From Oscillospiraceae bacterium (GTDB lineage: Bacteria; Bacillota; Clostridia; Oscillospirales; Ruminococcaceae), in NCBI GenBank assembly GCA_009780025.1, contig WRAV01000007.1:1-64000 (forward strand): 64,000 bases of DNA, read 5' to 3'. Position numbers and translations under genes: made by a program. The notes under the pieces are model-generated. The model saw nothing but the letters and a program-made list of their open reading frames with translations. It searched no databases and was not told where the DNA came from. Each line of letters begins with the position of its first letter. Position 1 is the first letter of the stretch. Of the stretch, positions 2,375-23,225 are shown one piece after another.

Positions 2375-2474
2375 AAGATAGGAGCGCTTTGTAATTTTCC
2401 GGTAAGATTTAGAGTTATGAATACATGTTCTCAAACACACTGAGCAACTTGTTTTATTTTGGAAGGTGAAGCCT

Positions 2475-4325
2475 ATGTTAATTGGAGCCGAGGGTCGCTG
2501 CCCACACTGCATAGAACCGGTCAGCGGGTCTTTTTGCACGTCCTGCGGCAAAAGCCCGGATGACATTTGCGACGTCCAGTACGCCAGGGCGGGGACAGTT
2601 GTTGGCGGGCGCTACCTCCTGGGTGCCTGCGTGCGAAAAAACGGAGAGGGCGCGCTATATGCGGGCCTTGACAAAATGCTGCAGCAAAAGGTTTGGGTTA
2701 GGGAGTATTTCCCCCAGACTATAGCGCAGCGAGACATTGCCACCGGGCGGATAAATCCGCTTTCCGGTTGTGGGGCCCAGTACAAGGCCCTCATGTCCGA
2801 TTTTGTGGACAGCTGCAACGAAGTGCGCCGCCTCAGCGTCACCGAGCAGGTTGTCCCGCTTGAGAACGCTATTTCCGAGAATAACACCGTCTATGCCGTC
2901 TACAAAGGGCTCGACCTTGTGAGCTTTGAGGATTACTTAGAAGAACAGGGAGGCATGTTGGGTTTTAGGCAGGCCTATGCTTTGCTGCAACCTATCTGCA
3001 ACACCCTGGAGCTGCTGCACTCGCACGGGCAGGTGCACCGGGGAATTTCGCCCTACAGCATTTACATGGGGCCGGATGGCAAACTCTATCTCTGGGATTT
3101 TGCTTTGGGTGCTACACGTACAGCCGGCAGCGAGCTCGACAGTGAGCTTTTCTCGGGCTACAGCGCCCCCGAGCAGTACTCCCCCAATGGGTGGCAGGGT
3201 AGCTGGACCGATGTCTATGCTATGGGCGCGCTCTTCTACCGAACCCTGACAGGCGTTGTGCCGCCAAAGTCCATACGCATAGACAAAGAGCAAAATCAGC
3301 TGGCCCGCCCAAGCGAGCTGCAAAACGGACTGAGCGAGGATATTTCCAGGACAATAATGGCGGCGATGTTCCCAACTGCGGAAGACAGGTTGCAAACTGT
3401 GCAGACTTTCCTTTCCCGGATGGTCGAACAGCGCCCGGCCAGCACATCTGTCTACGACTTGGGCAATTCGCGCCGGGCAAATGCAAACAGTGAACCGCAC
3501 AAAAAGCCTCCCCCCCGACGCCCGGCGCCTGTCAAGCAGGAGACGCGCGAGGAGCCCTCTGTACGCCCCCAAAAACAGCGGGAAAGGGGAGGGAGCACCT
3601 TCAAGTATGTGGTGCTTGGAACCCTGATTATGCTGGTGGTTTTGCTAGGTGTGCTCTACTACTTCATGACTACCACCATATGGGATATTCTGGGCGGTGG
3701 GGCTGGGCCTGCGCCGGATCCGGACTACGAGTACGGGTATTATGTAGATCCGCCTGTGGAAAACGTGCCTGTGGCGAGTGTCCCCAATTTTGTAGGCAGG
3801 CAGTTCTCTGATTTTGAGAACGACCCCGATTACCTGGAAAGGTTTACATTCGATGCCCGGTTTGAGCGCAGGCCGGAGAGGCAGGGCGGGGAAGTTTACG
3901 ACCAGAGCCCGGACCCGGGGTCGCCTATGCCCTCAGCTGAGCCGATACGCATTGTCCTCTGGATTAACCTGGAGGATGTGGAAATGCCCGAACTTGTGGG
4001 CTTACCGCTTGAAGAGGCCACCGCGCTGCTGGCCGAGCTGGAAATATTAGAGCCGCAAACATTGACGCGAATAAGCACTGAACCTGAAGGAACCGTGCTG
4101 CAAACTGTTCCCGAAGAGGGGGCGATGCTTAGCCCTGCCCGGGACACCGTTGTGTTGATTGTGTCCGTACAGCCCGAGATAACCCAGGGTGCCCATGACC
4201 CATCGCCCGGTGGTGGCGGCGGGACACTTCTCCCGCCTGGCTGGCAGCACTTGAGCCCCGCGGAGTTTGCGCAGTTAAGCCCGGAACAACAAGCCGCGGT
4301 ATTGGCCGCTCAACGGGGCGGATAA
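2475..4325 (+). CDS. zinc-ribbon, Ser/Thr pseudokinase with two PASTA domains
   Basis: A 616-residue membrane protein. A GGAAGGTG site 6 bases upstream favours the ATG at 2475 over the GTG at 2466. Order of parts: zinc ribbon (Cys9, 12, 21, 24), protein-kinase fold (about 40-320), basic Pro-rich linker, one membrane helix (about 377-399), PASTA 1 (about 435-498), PASTA 2 (about 501-566), and a Gly/Pro/Gln-rich tail. Catalytic residues are degraded: the VAIK lysine is Arg76, HRD is HRG (188-190), the following Asn is Ser195, and DFG is DFA (208-210). APE (231-233) and DVYAMG remain. It therefore looks like a pseudokinase that could sense peptidoglycan or lipid II through PASTA and signal by binding rather than phosphorylation. 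Active PrkC/Stk1 kinases have the same PASTA layout but keep these residues. It is followed closely by yebC, possibly co-transcribed. Confidence 0.85.
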   Translation: MLIGAEGRCPHCIEPVSGSFCTSCGKSPDDICDVQYARAGTVVGGRYLLGACVRKNGEGALYAGLDKMLQQKVWVREYFPQTIAQRDIATGRINPLSGCGAQYKALMSDFVDSCNEVRRLSVTEQVVPLENAISENNTVYAVYKGLDLVSFEDYLEEQGGMLGFRQAYALLQPICNTLELLHSHGQVHRGISPYSIYMGPDGKLYLWDFALGATRTAGSELDSELFSGYSAPEQYSPNGWQGSWTDVYAMGALFYRTLTGVVPPKSIRIDKEQNQLARPSELQNGLSEDISRTIMAAMFPTAEDRLQTVQTFLSRMVEQRPASTSVYDLGNSRRANANSEPHKKPPPRRPAPVKQETREEPSVRPQKQRERGGSTFKYVVLGTLIMLVVLLGVLYYFMTTTIWDILGGGAGPAPDPDYEYGYYVDPPVENVPVASVPNFVGRQFSDFENDPDYLERFTFDARFERRPERQGGEVYDQSPDPGSPMPSAEPIRIVLWINLEDVEMPELVGLPLEEATALLAELEILEPQTLTRISTEPEGTVLQTVPEEGAMLSPARDTVVLIVSVQPEITQGAHDPSPGGGGGTLLPPGWQHLSPAEFAQLSPEQQAAVLAAQRGG

Positions 4326-6496: not shown

Positions 6497-6548
6497 TGCT
6501 ATAGTTCGTCTGAAATATGGCTGCAACACTGAATATATAGTCAGCAGG

Positions 6549-7599
6549 CTTCAAAAATGCCACAAGGGTTGCGTGTGTTTTGTTTTTTGCAAATGTCGTA
6601 GGGTGTGGGGTTTTCTCTCACGAGTTCCATGGGCGCACCTCCTGTGTAGGCCGCAGCGACCCTGACGCGCTGCTTGTGTAAGTCCCAGGTCAAGATATTA
6701 AGGTCAAGTTCAAGGTCATAATCTTAATCAGCCTTCGGGCGAGGATAATGTGCCGCTCATGCCGCGGGGGCACTTACTTTCTTTGTCTCGCCAAAGAGAA
6801 AGTAAGCAAAAGAAAGGCGACTGGGGGAGGACCGGGTCTGTCTCGCAAAGGTCGCTCGCAAACAACTCCCCCAGACCCCCACTGGTGGGTCAAGGGCACG
6901 TTGGTGGGGGCGGTAGGTATGCGGACTGGTGATTCTGCTCCGCAGCGGACAGTATTGTCAACAACGGCACAGTTTGCAGCGAACACCTCACCGCGAAGAT
7001 TCCTTATTCTAAACCCGGGCTCGCATAGCGGCTGGGTAGGTTTGCTGGTAATCCTTACGATGGAATTGCACGACTTATCCAGCGGCTATGCCGGCAGGGG
7101 TTTAACTTCGCGGCGAAACGCTTGATGTCAGATATGCTGCTGTTGACAAGTCGGGAGCTCGTAATAATTACACGCCAACAGACGTTCTGGTTTTCGCTTA
7201 CCTGTCCGTATAGAGGGGGTCTGGGGGAGTTGAGAGCGACAGTGCTTGGAGCTCTCCCGGTTCTCCCCCAGTCGCTTTTCTTTTGCTTACTTTATCTTTG
7301 GCGAGACAAAGAAAAGTAAGTGCCTCCGCGGCAGGAGCGGCACATTAGTCTCGCCCGCAGGCGAATTTAAATTAAGACCTTGAACTGGAACTTGACCTTA
7401 AGACCCAGAACTGTACCTTGATCAAGCGGCGCGTCGAGGTCGCCGCGCCCTACACACCGCACAAAGCCCGCAGGCGGGAAAACCCTGTCCCTACAGCACG
7501 GTTAGGTTTGTGGGAATTGGCCAGGATGCCCGGGTGCGTGTCCCCTGCACGCAAAACCTTGACCTTAAAACTCACTCAACCTTTGCGGCATTTTTGAAG
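6549..7599. repeat. large imperfect palindrome of about 1.05 kb
   Basis: The stretch between the DUF4349 terminator and 7.6 kb holds no convincing gene. It reads as one long inverted repeat. Matching arm segments, outside to inside: CTTCAAAAATGCC (6549) with GGCATTTTTGAAG (7587); GTGTAGGCCGCAGCGACC with GGTCGCCGCGCCCTACAC; runs of AAGGTCAAG/CTTGACCTT; GTGCCGCTCATGCCGC with GCGGCAGGAGCGGCAC; TTTGTCTCGCC with GGCGAGACAAA; GGCGACTGGGGGAG with CTCCCCCAGTCG; ACTCCCCCAGACCCCC with its complement; TTGTCAACAACGGCA with TGCTGCTGTTGACAAG; and GCATAGCGGCTGG with CCAGCGGCTATGC near the centre. No transposase is seen. A shorter relative lies at 21377-21613. Confidence 0.85.
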
Positions 7600-7640
7600 T
7601 GGAATGAGTATAGCGCCAAATGCGCGAGGTGTGCAAATGC

Positions 7641-7792: not shown

Positions 7793-10750
7793 ATGGAAAG
7801 AGAAAATTACTATATACTGCTGGAGCTGCCTGTAGACCCGCCGGCTGGCGACCCGGCGCATATACGCGCGGCGCTTAGCAGGAAAAAACAGGAATGGACA
7901 CGAATGCAGGACAACCCACGCAAGCGAACTCAGGCGCTTGCTTACATTGCCCTGTTGCCGGATATGGAGCAGGTTCTTTTTGACCCGGTCGCCCGGAAGA
8001 ACGAGGCCAGACTGGCAAGCGAAGTGCTTGAGGATATGCTCCGCCGATTCGAAGCCGAGCTGCGCATCTTGGAGGGTAAGGGGCACCTGCTACCTCGAGA
8101 GGTGACGGCAATTGCCGCAAAATACAAGGCTTACGGTGTAGATCAACAAAAGGTGTACGGGCTGGCTAAAGTCCCGGTGTCCGAATGCCCCCCCGAGCGG
8201 GAAGATGCCGAGCAGGGCGGGGAAGTGCTTGACCGCCTGACCGCTAAAACTATTCGGCGGGCCCTGGCTATTGTTGAGCAAGACGATCTCTACCTCTTTC
8301 TGGGGGAGCCCAGGCACTCTACTATTAAAAAGTTGCGTGACGCAGCGCAGGAGCGCCGCAGGTTAGCCGCCGGGCAAAAGACAGCAAAATCGGTGGCAAC
8401 GGGGGAGCTCGCGGGAATCTGCCTGAGGTTGTTTGAAAGCTCCGACGCTAAGCAGCGATATGACCGTTACTTAAAAATCAGCGTTTATCCGGCCTTGGGA
8501 GAGATGGTGGACGAGGAGTTTGTCCGGCAAAAGTACATCGGCGAACCGGCGCTTCTCAGACTTGTCAACTACGGAGTGGAGAGCTGCGGCTGCACTGTGC
8601 TGGAAGCCGAAGATTATATCCGCCGGTACTGTGCGGCTTATCGCATCCCTATGGGTGAAGAGAAGGCTACGCTTAACTGTCCCGCCTGCAAAGAACTTAT
8701 TCCCTGCGAAAGCGTGGTCTGCGGGCACTGTGCCGCGCCTATCCAAGGCGCCTGCCCCAGCTGCGCTGCCCCATTTGATGGGGGCCCGGCTGTATGCCAC
8801 GACTGCAAATTTATGCTCGGGGATATGGTGAAGGCGCTGCCTTACCTTGAGGGCGCACACGCTTCGGCTATAGACGGCAACTGGTCGCTGTGCAGGCGCA
8901 ACCTTAGCTTCGCCGAAAAATACTGGCCGGGCCACCCGGAAATCTCGCAGCTCGAAGAGCGCGTTAAAGGCCTAGAAAACCGCTACAACGAGTACGTGCA
9001 GCAGCTGAGCGACTGCATGGCCAAAAACCAACACTACGCTGCTCTTGAACTGATTGCCGAGGCGCATCGAAAAAACATAGCCCTACCCCAGGCAACCGTA
9101 CGGCAGGTGGAGCGGACAATAGACGATCTGGAAAGCCAGCTGGACAAAATCGCCAAAGAGGACAAGCCGGATATTTACTTACTCATTTCGTTGGCGGAGA
9201 CGGTGTCCGACAGTATAGAGCTCACCCGGATACTCTCAGCGCACCCGCCGGAGGCTCCCGGCCCGCTAAAATGCGAAAACGTGGGGCGGCAGATGCACCT
9301 AAACTGGCAGGCCAGCGGCAGCCCCGGCAGCATAAAATACCTGCTGGTGCGTAAACAGGGTGAAGAGCCCTTCACCGCGTTTGACGGTGACGTAGTCTAT
9401 AACGGCCCCGCTTGTTTCTTTATTGATAAGACCGCGCATCCACTGGCGGAGTACTACTACAAAGTTTACACACATAGGGGCGGGACATACTCTGCTAAGG
9501 GTCAGATCGTGGGCCTGATTATGGCGGTGCCAGAGGTTGAGCAGCTGCGCATCTTCCCCGCGGACGGTGGGGCACAGCTCACATGGGAGTTTAACCCGGA
9601 TGTCCGCAAGGTGCTTATTTGGCGCAAGCTGGGCGGGGAGCGCCCAACTGCTCCAGAGGACGGCATCCTGCTCGAGACCGAACGTATCGACGGATTTGTG
9701 GACTCGAAAATCAAAAACGACGTTGAGTACTGGTACTATATTTGCGCTGTCTATATGGTCGAAGGGAAGCGGGTCGTCTCAAAGGGCGTGTCGGAAGCGA
9801 TCACCCCGCGCAAGATTATTGCGCCGGTTGACCATCTGACAATAGCCAGAAGCGAGTACGAGAGCGAGTACGTGGTCAACTGGAGCGGGATGGACTCCAC
9901 CGATCTAATTCTGTTAGGCAGCAAGAGCGAGCCCGGCGTAAAAGTCGGCGAGATAGTCGCGCTGCAAGACTTGCTGGCGGAATACCGCAATATTGCGCTC
10001 CATGCCCGGGGAGCCGAGGGTGGACGCTTTAGGCAGAGCTTTACCGGCGGGCTCTATATCTTTGCCGCGGTGGTTTTTGGCAAGTACGCGGTTGTGGGGC
10101 CTCCCCAGTATATAGCCAACCTCAAAGATGTTGGAAACCTGAGCGCCGAGTTGGTCGAAAGCGGCTTGCATCTGCACATGAACTGGCCAGCAGGGCTCGA
10201 AGAAATTGCTGTTGCCTATAAAAACGACGCCTACCCCGCAAGCCCCGATGATTTAGGCGCAACTACAATTAAGGTGACCCGGCAGCAGTACGACTACGAC
10301 GGGGGCGTTGACCTGCGCGGGATTGCGCCGGGTGCGTACTATATAACGGTGTTTGCCCTCTACCCCACCGGCGAGGACGACCAAAGTGCCTCTGAGGGTG
10401 CGCGGATATTCTACGACCACCAACCCTGCCAAGATGTGTTCTACCGCATTGTCTACAAGAAAAAGCTGTTTAGGAAGCAGGCAGACCTCTCCCTGATTTT
10501 GAGCGGGCAAGGGCACTTTACCCTACCTTCTATAGAACTCGTATGCAAGATCGGCAGCCTGCCTTTAAATCGAAAGGATGGCCAATCGCTGACTGTGCTC
10601 GACCAGTCCCCGAAGGTCAAAGGTGAGATCGAGTTTAAGTACCAGATAGATAGCCTGCCACAGGATTCTCATTTGCGGATTTTCCTGACAAGCGAGAAGG
10701 AGTACAAGAAATTCAGATTGATGCCCGGGACCGAGCTGAAGATAACATAG
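7793..10750 (+). CDS. J-like / zinc-ribbon / FN3-like multidomain protein
   Basis: I do not recognise a named family. The 985-residue protein has no signal peptide or membrane segment. Parts in order: a J-domain-like start (about 3-72, beginning ENYYILLELP) in which the HPD motif is absent (MQDNPRK at that place); helical region; a second J-like helical segment (about 160-235, DLYLFLGE ... RYDRYL); a double zinc ribbon with Cys pairs at about 298-341; a helical region (about 345-485); and three to four FN3-like beta repeats (about 489-575, 580-670, 676-775, 776-870) followed by a beta-rich C-terminus. It ends 19 bases before the P-loop GTPase gene, so the two are surely co-transcribed. The build suggests a cytoplasmic scaffold or adaptor. 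Losing HPD makes DnaK stimulation unlikely. Function is unknown. Confidence 0.8.
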   Translation: MERENYYILLELPVDPPAGDPAHIRAALSRKKQEWTRMQDNPRKRTQALAYIALLPDMEQVLFDPVARKNEARLASEVLEDMLRRFEAELRILEGKGHLLPREVTAIAAKYKAYGVDQQKVYGLAKVPVSECPPEREDAEQGGEVLDRLTAKTIRRALAIVEQDDLYLFLGEPRHSTIKKLRDAAQERRRLAAGQKTAKSVATGELAGICLRLFESSDAKQRYDRYLKISVYPALGEMVDEEFVRQKYIGEPALLRLVNYGVESCGCTVLEAEDYIRRYCAAYRIPMGEEKATLNCPACKELIPCESVVCGHCAAPIQGACPSCAAPFDGGPAVCHDCKFMLGDMVKALPYLEGAHASAIDGNWSLCRRNLSFAEKYWPGHPEISQLEERVKGLENRYNEYVQQLSDCMAKNQHYAALELIAEAHRKNIALPQATVRQVERTIDDLESQLDKIAKEDKPDIYLLISLAETVSDSIELTRILSAHPPEAPGPLKCENVGRQMHLNWQASGSPGSIKYLLVRKQGEEPFTAFDGDVVYNGPACFFIDKTAHPLAEYYYKVYTHRGGTYSAKGQIVGLIMAVPEVEQLRIFPADGGAQLTWEFNPDVRKVLIWRKLGGERPTAPEDGILLETERIDGFVDSKIKNDVEYWYYICAVYMVEGKRVVSKGVSEAITPRKIIAPVDHLTIARSEYESEYVVNWSGMDSTDLILLGSKSEPGVKVGEIVALQDLLAEYRNIALHARGAEGGRFRQSFTGGLYIFAAVVFGKYAVVGPPQYIANLKDVGNLSAELVESGLHLHMNWPAGLEEIAVAYKNDAYPASPDDLGATTIKVTRQQYDYDGGVDLRGIAPGAYYITVFALYPTGEDDQSASEGARIFYDHQPCQDVFYRIVYKKKLFRKQADLSLILSGQGHFTLPSIELVCKIGSLPLNRKDGQSLTVLDQSPKVKGEIEFKYQIDSLPQDSHLRIFLTSEKEYKKFRLMPGTELKIT

Positions 10751-10769
10751 AATACGGGTGGTTGCAGCC

Positions 10770-11876
10770 ATGATGAAGAATTGCCCTAAATGCCCCAGCC
10801 TGATGGAAAACTACCGGTACGCCTGCCAGAGCCTCGCCTGCTCGAGAGCCGGAATCCCGGTGGAAGAGAGCTTGGCAGAAACCGACGCCGCGGAACAAAA
10901 AGGGCCACGGCCCGACCCCGGTTGCCCAGAATGTGGCGAAGTTATGACCTTGCATATCTGCCCTGATTGCGGTTTTGAAGTAGAGGCCGAAGAGATGCGT
11001 CGCGGTTTTATGAGTGTGTCTCTTATAGGCAACGCTGGCAGCGGGAAGAGCAATTACCTGGCCGTGCTTGTCGACCAGCTGCGGGGGGAGATGTGCAAAG
11101 TGTACGACTGCACCCTTTACCCAACCGGCGGCGACCGCACCATGAACTACTACGAGCGCGAGTACCGCCGTCCGCTCTACGAGCAGGGGGTCTGTGTAAC
11201 TGCTACCCAGCAGGAAGACCTAAACCCGCTTACTTATACTTTGTTGTTTGAGGGACAGGGTGGCCGGCCGGGTAGGGGAGTAGGCCTTGCTTTTTATGAC
11301 AGCTGTGGCGAAAAGCTGGAAACCCAACAAGAGATGGCGGCAATGAGCCGTCGGCTACTCGGTTCAGGGGGGATACTGCTCCTACTGGACCCCAGTCAGC
11401 TGCCCGCCATAAGGGAAGCGCGCAAGGCAAAAAAATTGCCGGTGCTGCCCTCGGATGCCCAGGCGCTGTTGTTGCGCACCATACACATTATCCGAGCGGG
11501 GCTGGCGAGTGGGGAAGTTGAAAAGAAAATCGATATTCCGATAGCTGTCTGCCTCACCAAGCTGGATACCCTTTACCCGCATCTCGACCCGGCTAGCTTT
11601 GTGGGCGCGCCCTCGCGCAATTTGCGCAAACCTATGTTAAACAAGGCTGATATTTCCAGTTGCAACCTTGAGGTTATGGCTCTGCTGGAAAGCTGGGGCG
11701 GCGGAGAGTTTGTCCGGCATGTGCGCGGCCAGTTTTCCAACTACTGCTTTTTTGGGCTGAGCTCTTTGGGCTGCGAGCCGGGCAGCAAAAACGAGGTGGA
11801 TAGGATAAGCCCGCACCGTGTGCTCGACCCCATGCTTTGGCTGCTTTGGCAGAGCAAGATTCTGCAGGCGGGGTAG
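10770..11876 (+). CDS. zinc-ribbon P-loop GTPase (TRAFAC-like)
   Basis: A 368-residue cytoplasmic protein. The N-terminus carries two Cys-rich zinc-binding segments (Cys5/8/19/24 and CPEC...CPDC at about 52-67). The NTPase core shows G1 GNAGSGKS (87-94), a G3-like DSCGE (177-181) and a G4-like TKLD (263-266), so GTP is the likely nucleotide. The FYDSCGE form is reminiscent of the double-GTPase families that I recall from predicted NTP-dependent conflict systems; only one GTPase domain is evident here. The ATG at 10770 has a GGGTGG site 9 bases upstream and is preferred over GTG 10758. It is the second gene of a two-gene unit with the 985-residue protein. The role is unknown; an ATPase cannot be excluded. 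Confidence 0.8.
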   Translation: MMKNCPKCPSLMENYRYACQSLACSRAGIPVEESLAETDAAEQKGPRPDPGCPECGEVMTLHICPDCGFEVEAEEMRRGFMSVSLIGNAGSGKSNYLAVLVDQLRGEMCKVYDCTLYPTGGDRTMNYYEREYRRPLYEQGVCVTATQQEDLNPLTYTLLFEGQGGRPGRGVGLAFYDSCGEKLETQQEMAAMSRRLLGSGGILLLLDPSQLPAIREARKAKKLPVLPSDAQALLLRTIHIIRAGLASGEVEKKIDIPIAVCLTKLDTLYPHLDPASFVGAPSRNLRKPMLNKADISSCNLEVMALLESWGGGEFVRHVRGQFSNYCFFGLSSLGCEPGSKNEVDRISPHRVLDPMLWLLWQSKILQAG

Positions 11877-21613: not shown

Positions 21614-21665
21614 TTCGTTGACTATATTTTTCACTCACAACATATCTAAGAGGAGGGCCAGGGAA

Positions 21666-23225
21666 ATGGCTGAAGCCGCCTGTTTGTTAGAGGCCCGTAA
21701 TATAACCAAGCTCTTCCCAGGAGTAAAGGCTCTTGATGGAGTGAATTTTAGTGTCCGCGCGGGGGAAGTCCACGCATTGCTAGGCGAAAACGGCGCGGGT
21801 AAGTCTACGCTGGCCAAATGCTTTATTGGGATACACCAGCCCACGTCCGGGGAAATTTTGCTTGAGGGCAAGGCGATGGAGTTTGTCGGCACCCGCGCGG
21901 CCCTAAGCGCGGGTATCTCGATGATTCACCAGGAGCTCAGTCCGGTGCTCTCAAGGCCGATTATGGAAAACATATGGCTGGGCCGGGAGCCGCTGAACAA
22001 GCTGGGCCTTGTCGACCACAAGAAGATGTACGAGGACACCCAAAAGTTGCTGGCAACCATCGACATGCAAGATAACCCAAAGACTCTTATGAGCGAGCTA
22101 ACTGTCGCCAAAATCCAGATGATAGAGATTGCCAAAGCGGTCTCTTACGACTCTAAGCTGATTATTATGGACGAGCCGACCTCATCTTTGATGGATAGGG
22201 AAGTTGAACAGCTTTTCCGAATTATTCGCGAGCTGACCGCTAAGGGGATCGGTATCATATACGTTTCCCACAAAATGGCGGAGATTTTTAAGATTTCTGA
22301 TCGATTCACTGTACTGCGGGATGGTGCGTATATTGGTACGCGCAACACAAATGAATCCAAGCTCGAGGACATAATCAACATGATGGTGGGACGCGACCTG
22401 AAGGAAATGTATTCTAAATCCGACCACCAGAAGGGCGAACCCCTGCTTGAGGTAAGCGACCTTAGCAGTGGCAAAGTCTTCAGCGGGGTCTCGTTCACCG
22501 CGCGCAGAGGCGAAATTTTGGGTTTTGCCGGCCTTATGGGCGCCGGGCGGACAGAAGTTATGGAGACGATCTTCGGCAGCCGGCGCAAGACTCAAGGCAA
22601 AATCCGAATAAATGGCGAGAGTGTACAGATAAAACACACCCGGGACGCCATAAAGCGAGGCATCGCAATGCTGACCGAGGACAGGCGGCGGACGGGTATC
22701 TTCCCTGTGCTCTCGGTCAAGGACAACATGATTTACGCCAGGTTACCACACTACCTAAACAAGCTTGGTCTGCTGAGGCTGGGGCAGATGGATAAAGACT
22801 GTGCCCACTACAAAGAGCGTGTTGACGTGCGCACCCCAAGCCTGCGGCAGCAGATACAGTTTCTCTCTGGGGGAAACCAGCAAAAAGTGCTCGTGGCTAA
22901 GTGGCTGCTGATCCAGCCGGATATTCTGATATTGGACGAGCCGACCCGAGGCATCGATGTTGGAGCCAAGGCCGAAATCTACAAGCTGATGGAAAACCTG
23001 GCGCGGGAGGGCAAGTGCATCCTGATGGTTTCCTCCGAGCTGCCCGAGATTTTGGGGATGAGCGACCGAATAGTGGTCATGCATGAGGGGCGGGTAACCG
23101 GCATTTTGGAAAACACACCCGATATGAGCGAAGAGCAGATTATGGCCTATGCCACAAAAGCGGCCGGGGCTCAGCCCGGCAAAGATACCCCAAACGTAAA
23201 GGAGAGTGCAGACGATGGCAACTAA
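21666..23225 (+). CDS. sugar ABC transporter ATPase, RbsA/MglA type
   Basis: A 519-residue protein with two fused nucleotide-binding domains. The first has Walker A GENGAGKST and Walker B LIIMDEPTSSL. The second has a degenerate Walker A (GLMGAGRTEV), LSGGNQQKVLVAKWL signature and LILDEPTRGIDVG, the usual asymmetry of the CUT2 family. The ATG at 21666 is preceded by GAGGAGGGCCAGGG; the frame upstream to 21618 is repeat sequence. Its last 11 bases overlap the start of the permease gene, showing translational coupling. Confidence 0.95.
   Translation: MAEAACLLEARNITKLFPGVKALDGVNFSVRAGEVHALLGENGAGKSTLAKCFIGIHQPTSGEILLEGKAMEFVGTRAALSAGISMIHQELSPVLSRPIMENIWLGREPLNKLGLVDHKKMYEDTQKLLATIDMQDNPKTLMSELTVAKIQMIEIAKAVSYDSKLIIMDEPTSSLMDREVEQLFRIIRELTAKGIGIIYVSHKMAEIFKISDRFTVLRDGAYIGTRNTNESKLEDIINMMVGRDLKEMYSKSDHQKGEPLLEVSDLSSGKVFSGVSFTARRGEILGFAGLMGAGRTEVMETIFGSRRKTQGKIRINGESVQIKHTRDAIKRGIAMLTEDRRRTGIFPVLSVKDNMIYARLPHYLNKLGLLRLGQMDKDCAHYKERVDVRTPSLRQQIQFLSGGNQQKVLVAKWLLIQPDILILDEPTRGIDVGAKAEIYKLMENLAREGKCILMVSSELPEILGMSDRIVVMHEGRVTGILENTPDMSEEQIMAYATKAAGAQPGKDTPNVKESADDGN

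What the first reader, a model, noticed from the sequence alone, without database searches (positions are those of the whole stretch)
7793..11876. Two-gene unit: J-like/zinc-ribbon/FN3 scaffold plus zinc-ribbon GTPase
Seen: a 985-residue protein with a degenerate J-domain start (no HPD), a second J-like segment, double zinc ribbon and several FN3-like repeats is followed after 19 bases by a zinc-ribbon protein with GNAGSGKS, DSCGE and TKLD. Known: zinc-ribbon adaptors, J-like domains and TRAFAC GTPases recur in predicted NTP-dependent conflict or signalling systems. Inferred: the first protein is a scaffold that recruits clients or partners and the GTPase is a switch. The pair may be a defence, stress or sporulation-linked system. 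It lies next to a large palindrome and an XRE regulator/small gene pair, which fits an accessory island.
Basis: partly seen in the sequence, partly recalled or inferred. Interest (0 to 1): 0.8.

Follow-up and report, generated by a model that had tools for sequence, protein, structure and literature searches.

The report
Stripped-down sensor–GTPase gene pair
Two neighbouring genes encode a large multi-domain protein and a zinc-binding GTP switch that normally sit in a bigger predicted bacterial defence or stress operon; in this organism and its closest relatives the supposedly essential third partner (GAP1) and most other parts are gone, leaving a minimal, still-conserved version.

Summary
7793-10750 encodes two HPD-less J-like domains, a double zinc ribbon (8 Cys invariant in 48 relatives), a TPR-like region and five beta-sandwiches (FN3 type). 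10770-11876 encodes a two-zinc-ribbon GTPase over the Pfam cut-off for DO-GTPase2. Both are orthologues of components of the DO-GTPase/GAP1-N2 systems (HSP70/GrpE theme) predicted by Kaur et al. 2020 (PMC7159879). In 73 of 89 related loci the FN3/J gene lies directly upstream of the GTPase gene; the two proteins' distances correlate at r=0.91. What is new is the reduction. The window's genome (94.7% complete) has no detectable GAP1, no second (membrane) DO-GTPase and no HSP70 beyond ordinary DnaK. The window and three clostridial MAG loci form a 100/100-supported GAP1-less clade nested among GAP1-bearing systems: one keeps GrpE-HSP70, another shows only the pair. Low dN/dS (0.05-0.12) in the clade argues against decay. 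In three of its four members the otherwise invariant catalytic-position glutamate (E185) is lysine; the window keeps E. The palindrome is a dispersed repeat (at least 40 copies) and flanking genes are housekeeping, so nothing marks a defence island. Function is untested; scaffold/sensor plus GTP switch is the best reading.

The parts
7793..10750 (+). 985-aa J-like/zinc-ribbon/TPR-like/FN3 protein (FNIII component of a DO-GTPase system)
   Evidence: ORF; orthologues (27% over 770 aa), 56% in L083; adjacent upstream of the GTPase in 73 of 89 loci
7796..8074 (+). J-like domain 1 (aa 2-94), no HPD; loop is DNP where relatives L083/L085 have HPG/HPL
   Evidence: (6rzy_A Z 8.6 over aa 2-73)
8234..8485 (+). 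J-like domain 2 (aa 148-231), no HPD
   Evidence: (3ucs_C Z 8.4; 4wb7_A Z 8.6)
8678..8806 (+). double zinc ribbon (aa 296-338), 8 Cys invariant in 48 sequences
8822..9247 (+). TPR-like helical region (aa 344-485)
   Evidence: Z up to 9.9 to TPR chains, aa 343-398; a few relatives hit Pfam TPR families
9266..10417 (+). four FN3-like beta-sandwich domains (aa 492-875)
10430..10726 (+). C-terminal beta-sandwich domain (aa 880-978)
10770..11876 (+). zinc-ribbon DO-GTPase (ATG start; upstream GTG at 10758 possible)
   Evidence: PF19993, 28.4 bits, cut-off 27
10782..10841 (+). zinc ribbon 1 of the GTPase (C9, C12, C23, C28 in P0002 numbering)
10923..10970 (+). zinc ribbon 2 of the GTPase (C56, C59, C68, C71)
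11028..11051 (+). G1/P-loop GNAGSGKS
11298..11312 (+). G3/Walker B DSCGE; E185 is the position that is K in L083/L084/L085
11556..11567 (+). G4 TKLD

Best explanation
The pair is a reduced DO-GTPase system of the GAP1-N2 type, HSP70/GrpE theme. It kept the FN3/J-like scaffold and the zinc-ribbon GTPase, and lost GAP1, the membrane DO-GTPase and the dedicated HSP70/GrpE. Shown: orthology, adjacency, co-inheritance, absence of the other parts at the locus and (by profile search) in the genome, purifying selection in the clade, and predicted folds. Inferred: the scaffold binds a client or trigger through its FN3, TPR and J-like surfaces. It relays this to the GTPase held beside it by zinc-ribbon contacts, and the GTPase acts as an on/off switch by GTP binding. 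The HPD-less J-like domains serve as docking modules rather than as stimulators of HSP70 ATPase. Without GAP1 the switch must either act alone or signal to a host partner, possibly chromosomal DnaK. The physiological role (defence or envelope/protein stress) is undetermined. The confidence given is for the reduced-system identity; for the scaffold-switch mechanism I put about 0.45, and for an anti-phage role about 0.25.
For: PF19993 hit over cut-off. Full systems GrpE-like/HSP70(-vWA) > J/ZnR/FN3 > ZnR-GTPase > GAP1, with a ZnR-TM-GTPase further on, in L039, L040 and L065/L066, annotated with Pfam. 80 further loci; FN3/J directly upstream in 73 of 89, GAP1 in 64 of 75 loci with long flanks. 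Mantel r 0.91 between the two proteins over 56 loci, 0 of 2000 permutations as high. GAP1-less clade WIN+L083+L084+L085 at 100/100, nested with nine GAP1+ rows at 98/93; the FN3/J tree gives WIN+L083+L085 at SH-aLRT 100. L085 keeps GrpE and HSP70 but no GAP1. Window genome: no PF20013, no GAP1 with a four-sequence profile, no second DO-GTPase, only DnaK plus two hits in 343-344-aa frames (MreB-sized) for HSP70. dN/dS L083 vs L084 0.11-0.12 (GTPase) and 0.05-0.06 (FN3/J part). Folds.
Against: No functional study of a DO-GTPase system turned up in the paper searches. The profile search for GAP1 had no positive control in the same call, and GAP1 diverges fast: PF20013 missed the GAP1 of G375. The genome is 94.7% complete. 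For L083 and L085 only the flanks, not whole genomes, were tested; L084 has almost no upstream flank. The window protein is only 1.4 bits over the DO-GTPase2 cut-off.
Confidence: 0.72

Rival explanations
1. The pair is a decaying remnant of a full system and no longer works.
For: Most components are missing. In L083/L084/L085 the catalytic-position E185 is K. Independent lone GTPases exist in L045 and L104.
Against: Both frames are full length and 55-56% identical to L083 over their whole length. dN/dS is 0.05-0.12 in the close pair L083/L084. Zinc ligands, P-loop and G4 are kept in all four, and the window keeps E185.
Confidence: 0.1
2. The pair still works with partners in trans: a GAP1-like protein too divergent to detect or in the missing part of the assembly, and the cell's ordinary DnaK.
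For: The genome is 94.7% complete in 72 contigs. GAP1-N2 is missed by Pfam in some true systems (G375). A canonical DnaK is present.
Against: GAP1 lies with the GTPase in 64 of 75 well-flanked loci, usually right downstream. The window's pair is well inside a contig and is followed by a convergent gene. The same GAP1-less layout recurs in L083 and L085. HPD is absent from both J-like domains, which argues against canonical stimulation of DnaK.
Confidence: 0.18
3. The pair has been domesticated to a housekeeping or envelope/sporulation role unrelated to conflict.
For: Flanks are housekeeping in the three reduced loci that can be read: SpoIVA and YebC here, the methylaspartate pathway and an EPSP-synthase-family gene in L083, a class II lysyl-type tRNA synthetase in L085. 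No match to P0002 on phages or plasmids. A DO-GTPase has been linked to membrane stress by others (PMC11237479).
Against: Patchy distribution: none in 13 other genomes of the window's own family and 3 of 197 in its order, and different neighbours in each reduced locus, which is unlike a housekeeping gene.
Confidence: 0.2

Closest known systems
DO-GTPase / GAP1-N2 systems, HSP70-GrpE-DnaJ/FNIII theme (Kaur et al. 2020, PMC7159879)
   Same: Two-zinc-ribbon DO-GTPase, FNIII protein fused to a J-type domain or TPR, gene order FN3/J then GTPase; HSP70/GrpE kept in the sister L085
   Different: No GAP1, no membrane DO-GTPase, no HSP70/GrpE in the window's system; J-like domains lack HPD (as do all relatives compared)
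DO-GTPase / GAP1-N2 systems of the tubulin theme (Clostridium, e.g. L095-L103)
   Same: Zinc-ribbon DO-GTPase preceded by a short FN3-related gene
   Different: These carry GAP1 and a tubulin-like gene; their FN3-related protein is much shorter (about 350-450 aa)
Lone zinc-ribbon DO-GTPases (L045, L104)
   Same: Same GTPase family without GAP1
   Different: No FN3/J partner; a separate loss on the tree
Methanomassiliicoccales systems (L157, L159-L162)
   Same: J/FN3 > GTPase with no GAP1 detected where the flank is long enough
   Different: HSP70 retained next to the pair; a separate branch; GAP1 may be divergent rather than absent

Membership tests
DO-GTPase (PF19993) | Match over the curated cut-off | tested here: met
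   28.4 bits, cut-off 27, E 1.6e-6
DO-GTPase (PF19993) | Conserved glutamate in Walker B/G3 | tested here: met
   DSCGE in the window; E in 79 of 82 rows, K in L083, L084, L085
DO-GTPase (PF19993) | N-terminal zinc ribbon(s) (60% of the family) | tested here: met
   two Cys4 ribbons, Cys kept in relatives
GAP1-N2 DO-GTPase system | FNIII-repeat protein in the operon, fused to J or TPR in the HSP70 theme | tested here: met
GAP1-N2 DO-GTPase system | GAP1 protein with GAP1-N2/M/C domains | tested here: not met
   none at the locus or found in the genome; caveat: 94.7% complete genome and fast divergence of GAP1
GAP1-N2 DO-GTPase system, HSP70 theme | Dedicated HSP70 and GrpE genes in the neighbourhood | tested here: not met
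   HSP70: only DnaK on another contig, none by profile at the locus. A dedicated GrpE was not searched genome-wide. Both present in sister L085
GAP1-N2 DO-GTPase system | Second, TM-bearing DO-GTPase (only in some systems) | tested here: not met
   profile A6 finds only P0002 itself
J-domain co-chaperone (Hsp40) | J fold | tested here: met
   predicted model, Foldseek probability 0.97-1.00 for J-domain chains and Z 8.4-8.6 for both domains; Foldseek E-values about 1, so moderate support
J-domain co-chaperone (Hsp40) | HPD tripeptide | tested here: not met
   0 of 57 in either segment
Known anti-phage defence system (PADLOC) | Match to a system model | tested here: not met
   only weak partial matches of P0002 (PDC-S64 E 0.0017, PtuA1 E 0.017), none of P0001
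Anti-phage defence | Protects cells from phage | not testable with these tools
   needs experiment

The most novel reading that the evidence does not exclude
GAP1 is dispensable: the FN3/J-like protein and its zinc-ribbon GTPase are by themselves a complete minimal sensor-switch. In this lineage the switch has moved away from ordinary hydrolysis control, as suggested by Glu-to-Lys at the Ras-Gln61-like position in three of four members and the unusual DSCGE in the fourth.
Probability: 0.35. Interest if true: 0.62.

Novelty: new variant of a known kind. Interest (0 to 1): 0.45.

Why it matters
DO-GTPase systems were described with GAP1 as a constant, coordinating component, and no experimental study of one was found in the library searched. 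A natural two-gene version that evolution kept intact would be the simplest form to express, purify and test. It suggests which parts are core: the FN3/J scaffold and the zinc-ribbon GTPase. The clade-specific change at the catalytic position gives a direct biochemical question, GTP hydrolysis with Glu versus Lys.

Tried and rejected
Accessory island marked by the palindrome: rejected, its arm occurs at least 40 times in the genome. Defence-island context: PADLOC hits of neighbours are generic HTH models for the XRE gene and mad3/mad8 for the gene at 21618-23222, which follows an RbsB-like binding protein and is probably a sugar-ABC ATPase; not taken as defence. Recent acquisition by composition: GC3 of the pair (0.66-0.67) is within that of neighbours. 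PASTA kinase at 2466-4325 as a partner: it has an N-terminal CxxC segment, like the zinc-ribbon kinases of Kaur's third theme, but it is separated by YebC, a DUF4349 gene and the palindrome, and no kinase gene was recognised beside the pair in L083 or L085 (ORF lists read by eye); not included. Phage, plasmid and viral collections: no relative of P0002. A general link between GAP1 loss and E185K: not supported, since L045, L104, L131 and the archaeal rows, where no GAP1 was detected, keep E. No close sequence relative in the PDB.
Full report
Observation. The first protein has 985 residues. The second starts at ATG 10770, 19 nt after the first stop, or at GTG 10758. The pair lies inside a contig of a 2.06-Mb, 94.7% complete genome and is followed by a convergent small gene.

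Domains. The GTPase matches DO-GTPase2 (PF19993) at 28.4 bits, cut-off 27. No NCBIfam or PADLOC model names it. For the large protein I built an alignment of 57 sequences from session loci and folded its two halves with 48 of them. Both models reach mean pLDDT 92.7; pTM is 0.45 and 0.62, so domain arrangement is not reliable. The N-terminal half holds two J-like domains: residues 2-73 align with a J-domain over 69 of 70 residues, and 148-231 with CbpA's over 72 of 74; Foldseek gives J-domain chains probabilities of 0.97-1.00 but E-values near 1. Middling Z is common for helical bundles, so I call the J fold moderately supported. HPD is absent from both segments in all 57 sequences, including those of systems that encode HSP70 beside it, so its loss is older than the loss of HSP70 in the window. 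Six relatives keep HP followed by another residue in the first loop. Then come a double zinc ribbon with eight invariant cysteines (46 of 48 members hit DZR) and TPR-like helices. The C-terminal half has five beta-sandwiches; 19 of 48 members hit Pfam fn3, best 1.4e-10, and the model matches fibronectin repeats 7-10 at 5e-13.

What it belongs to. Kaur et al. 2020 (PMC7159879) predicted DO-GTPase systems. In the GAP1-N2 type, a GTPase with two zinc ribbons goes with GAP1 and an FNIII protein; in one theme HSP70 and GrpE are present and the FNIII protein is fused to DnaJ or TPR. Loci L039, L040 and L065/L066 show that layout with Pfam support, their FN3/J and GTPase proteins being orthologues of the window's. 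A scan of 84,980 species genomes gave 80 more loci. Profiles run over all ORFs put the FN3/J gene directly upstream of the GTPase in 73 of 89 loci and GAP1 in 64 of 75 with long flanks. Distances of the two proteins correlate at r=0.91 over 56 loci. A few loci appear twice under different handles (L039/L123, L040/L137), so these counts are slightly inflated.

What is different here. No GAP1-N2, no GAP1 by a four-sequence profile, no membrane DO-GTPase, and only an ordinary DnaK on another contig plus two matches in MreB-sized frames. The closest relatives, L083 (Oscillospiraceae MAG, 54% GTPase, 56% FN3/J) and L085 (Oscillospiraceae MAG, 43% and 41%), also lack GAP1 at the locus. L083 has the bare pair; L085 has GrpE-like, HSP70, FN3/J, GTPase. 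L084 matches L083 but its contig starts inside the FN3/J gene. On a careful tree of 82 GTPases these four form a clade at 100/100, inside a 98/93 group whose other nine members have GAP1; the FN3/J tree agrees. The simplest history is loss of GAP1 and the membrane GTPase in the clade's ancestor, then of HSP70/GrpE on the branch to the window and L083. GAP1 also appears lost separately in L045/L104 (lone GTPases), L131 and Methanomassiliicoccales archaea, with the caution that divergent GAP1 can be missed: the survey profile missed L038's GAP1-M protein, which Pfam sees weakly.

Is it alive? Yes by sequence: dN/dS between L083 and L084 is 0.11-0.12 for the GTPase and 0.05-0.06 for the FN3/J part; window against L083 is saturated at silent sites but points the same way. 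Of 62 columns conserved in at least 85% of the other rows, only six are replaced in all four. The most telling column is E185, right after the G3 glycine and equivalent by motif position to Ras Gln61: E in 79 of 82 rows, K in exactly L083, L084 and L085, E in the window with a cysteine in place of the usual alanine (DSCGE). That three separate assemblies carry K argues against sequencing error. By analogy with Ras Q61K (my own knowledge), K would slow hydrolysis; this is inference.

Context. Flanks are housekeeping: YebC, SpoIVA, inositol catabolism here, and other genes in L083 and L085. No phage or plasmid relative, none in viral contigs. The palindrome is a dispersed repeat. None of 13 other genomes of the same family has the GTPase, so distribution is patchy. 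Defence is therefore a prediction inherited from the family, with no local support.

Mechanism. Best reading: the FN3/TPR/J-like protein senses or holds a client and sets the state of the GTPase next to it; zinc ribbons on both proteins are likely docking elements. Confidence is high for the family assignment, moderate for the GAP1-less state, and low for the biological role.

Noticed in passing
6536-7612: Large imperfect palindrome is one of at least 40 dispersed copies in the genome, often inverted pairs about 650 bp across and often at contig ends; looks like a MITE-type or other palindromic repeat family.
   Followed up: partly
2466-4325: Ser/Thr kinase with two PASTA domains and, unusually, an N-terminal CxxC zinc-ribbon-like segment.
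   Followed up: no
L083:9995-11080, L084:570-1649, L085:10007-11083: G3 glutamate of the DO-GTPase is lysine in these three only, out of 82.
   Followed up: partly
L045:8902-10080 and L104:9965-11143: Lone zinc-ribbon DO-GTPase genes with neither FN3/J nor GAP1 beside them; sister to Clostridium tubulin-type systems.
   Followed up: partly
L159, L160, L161, L162: Methanomassiliicoccales archaea carry J/FN3 > GTPase with HSP70 nearby but no GAP1 detected.
   Followed up: partly
L040:15311-16427: The GTPase gene of this otherwise full system is split into two overlapping frames, a frameshift or assembly error.
   Followed up: no
L065:11673-17154: Three consecutive HSP70-family genes, the one nearest the FN3/J gene fused to a vWA domain.
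   Followed up: no
900-2234: 444-aa ORF with no Pfam match and only a chance-level NCBIfam one (E 0.2).
   Followed up: no
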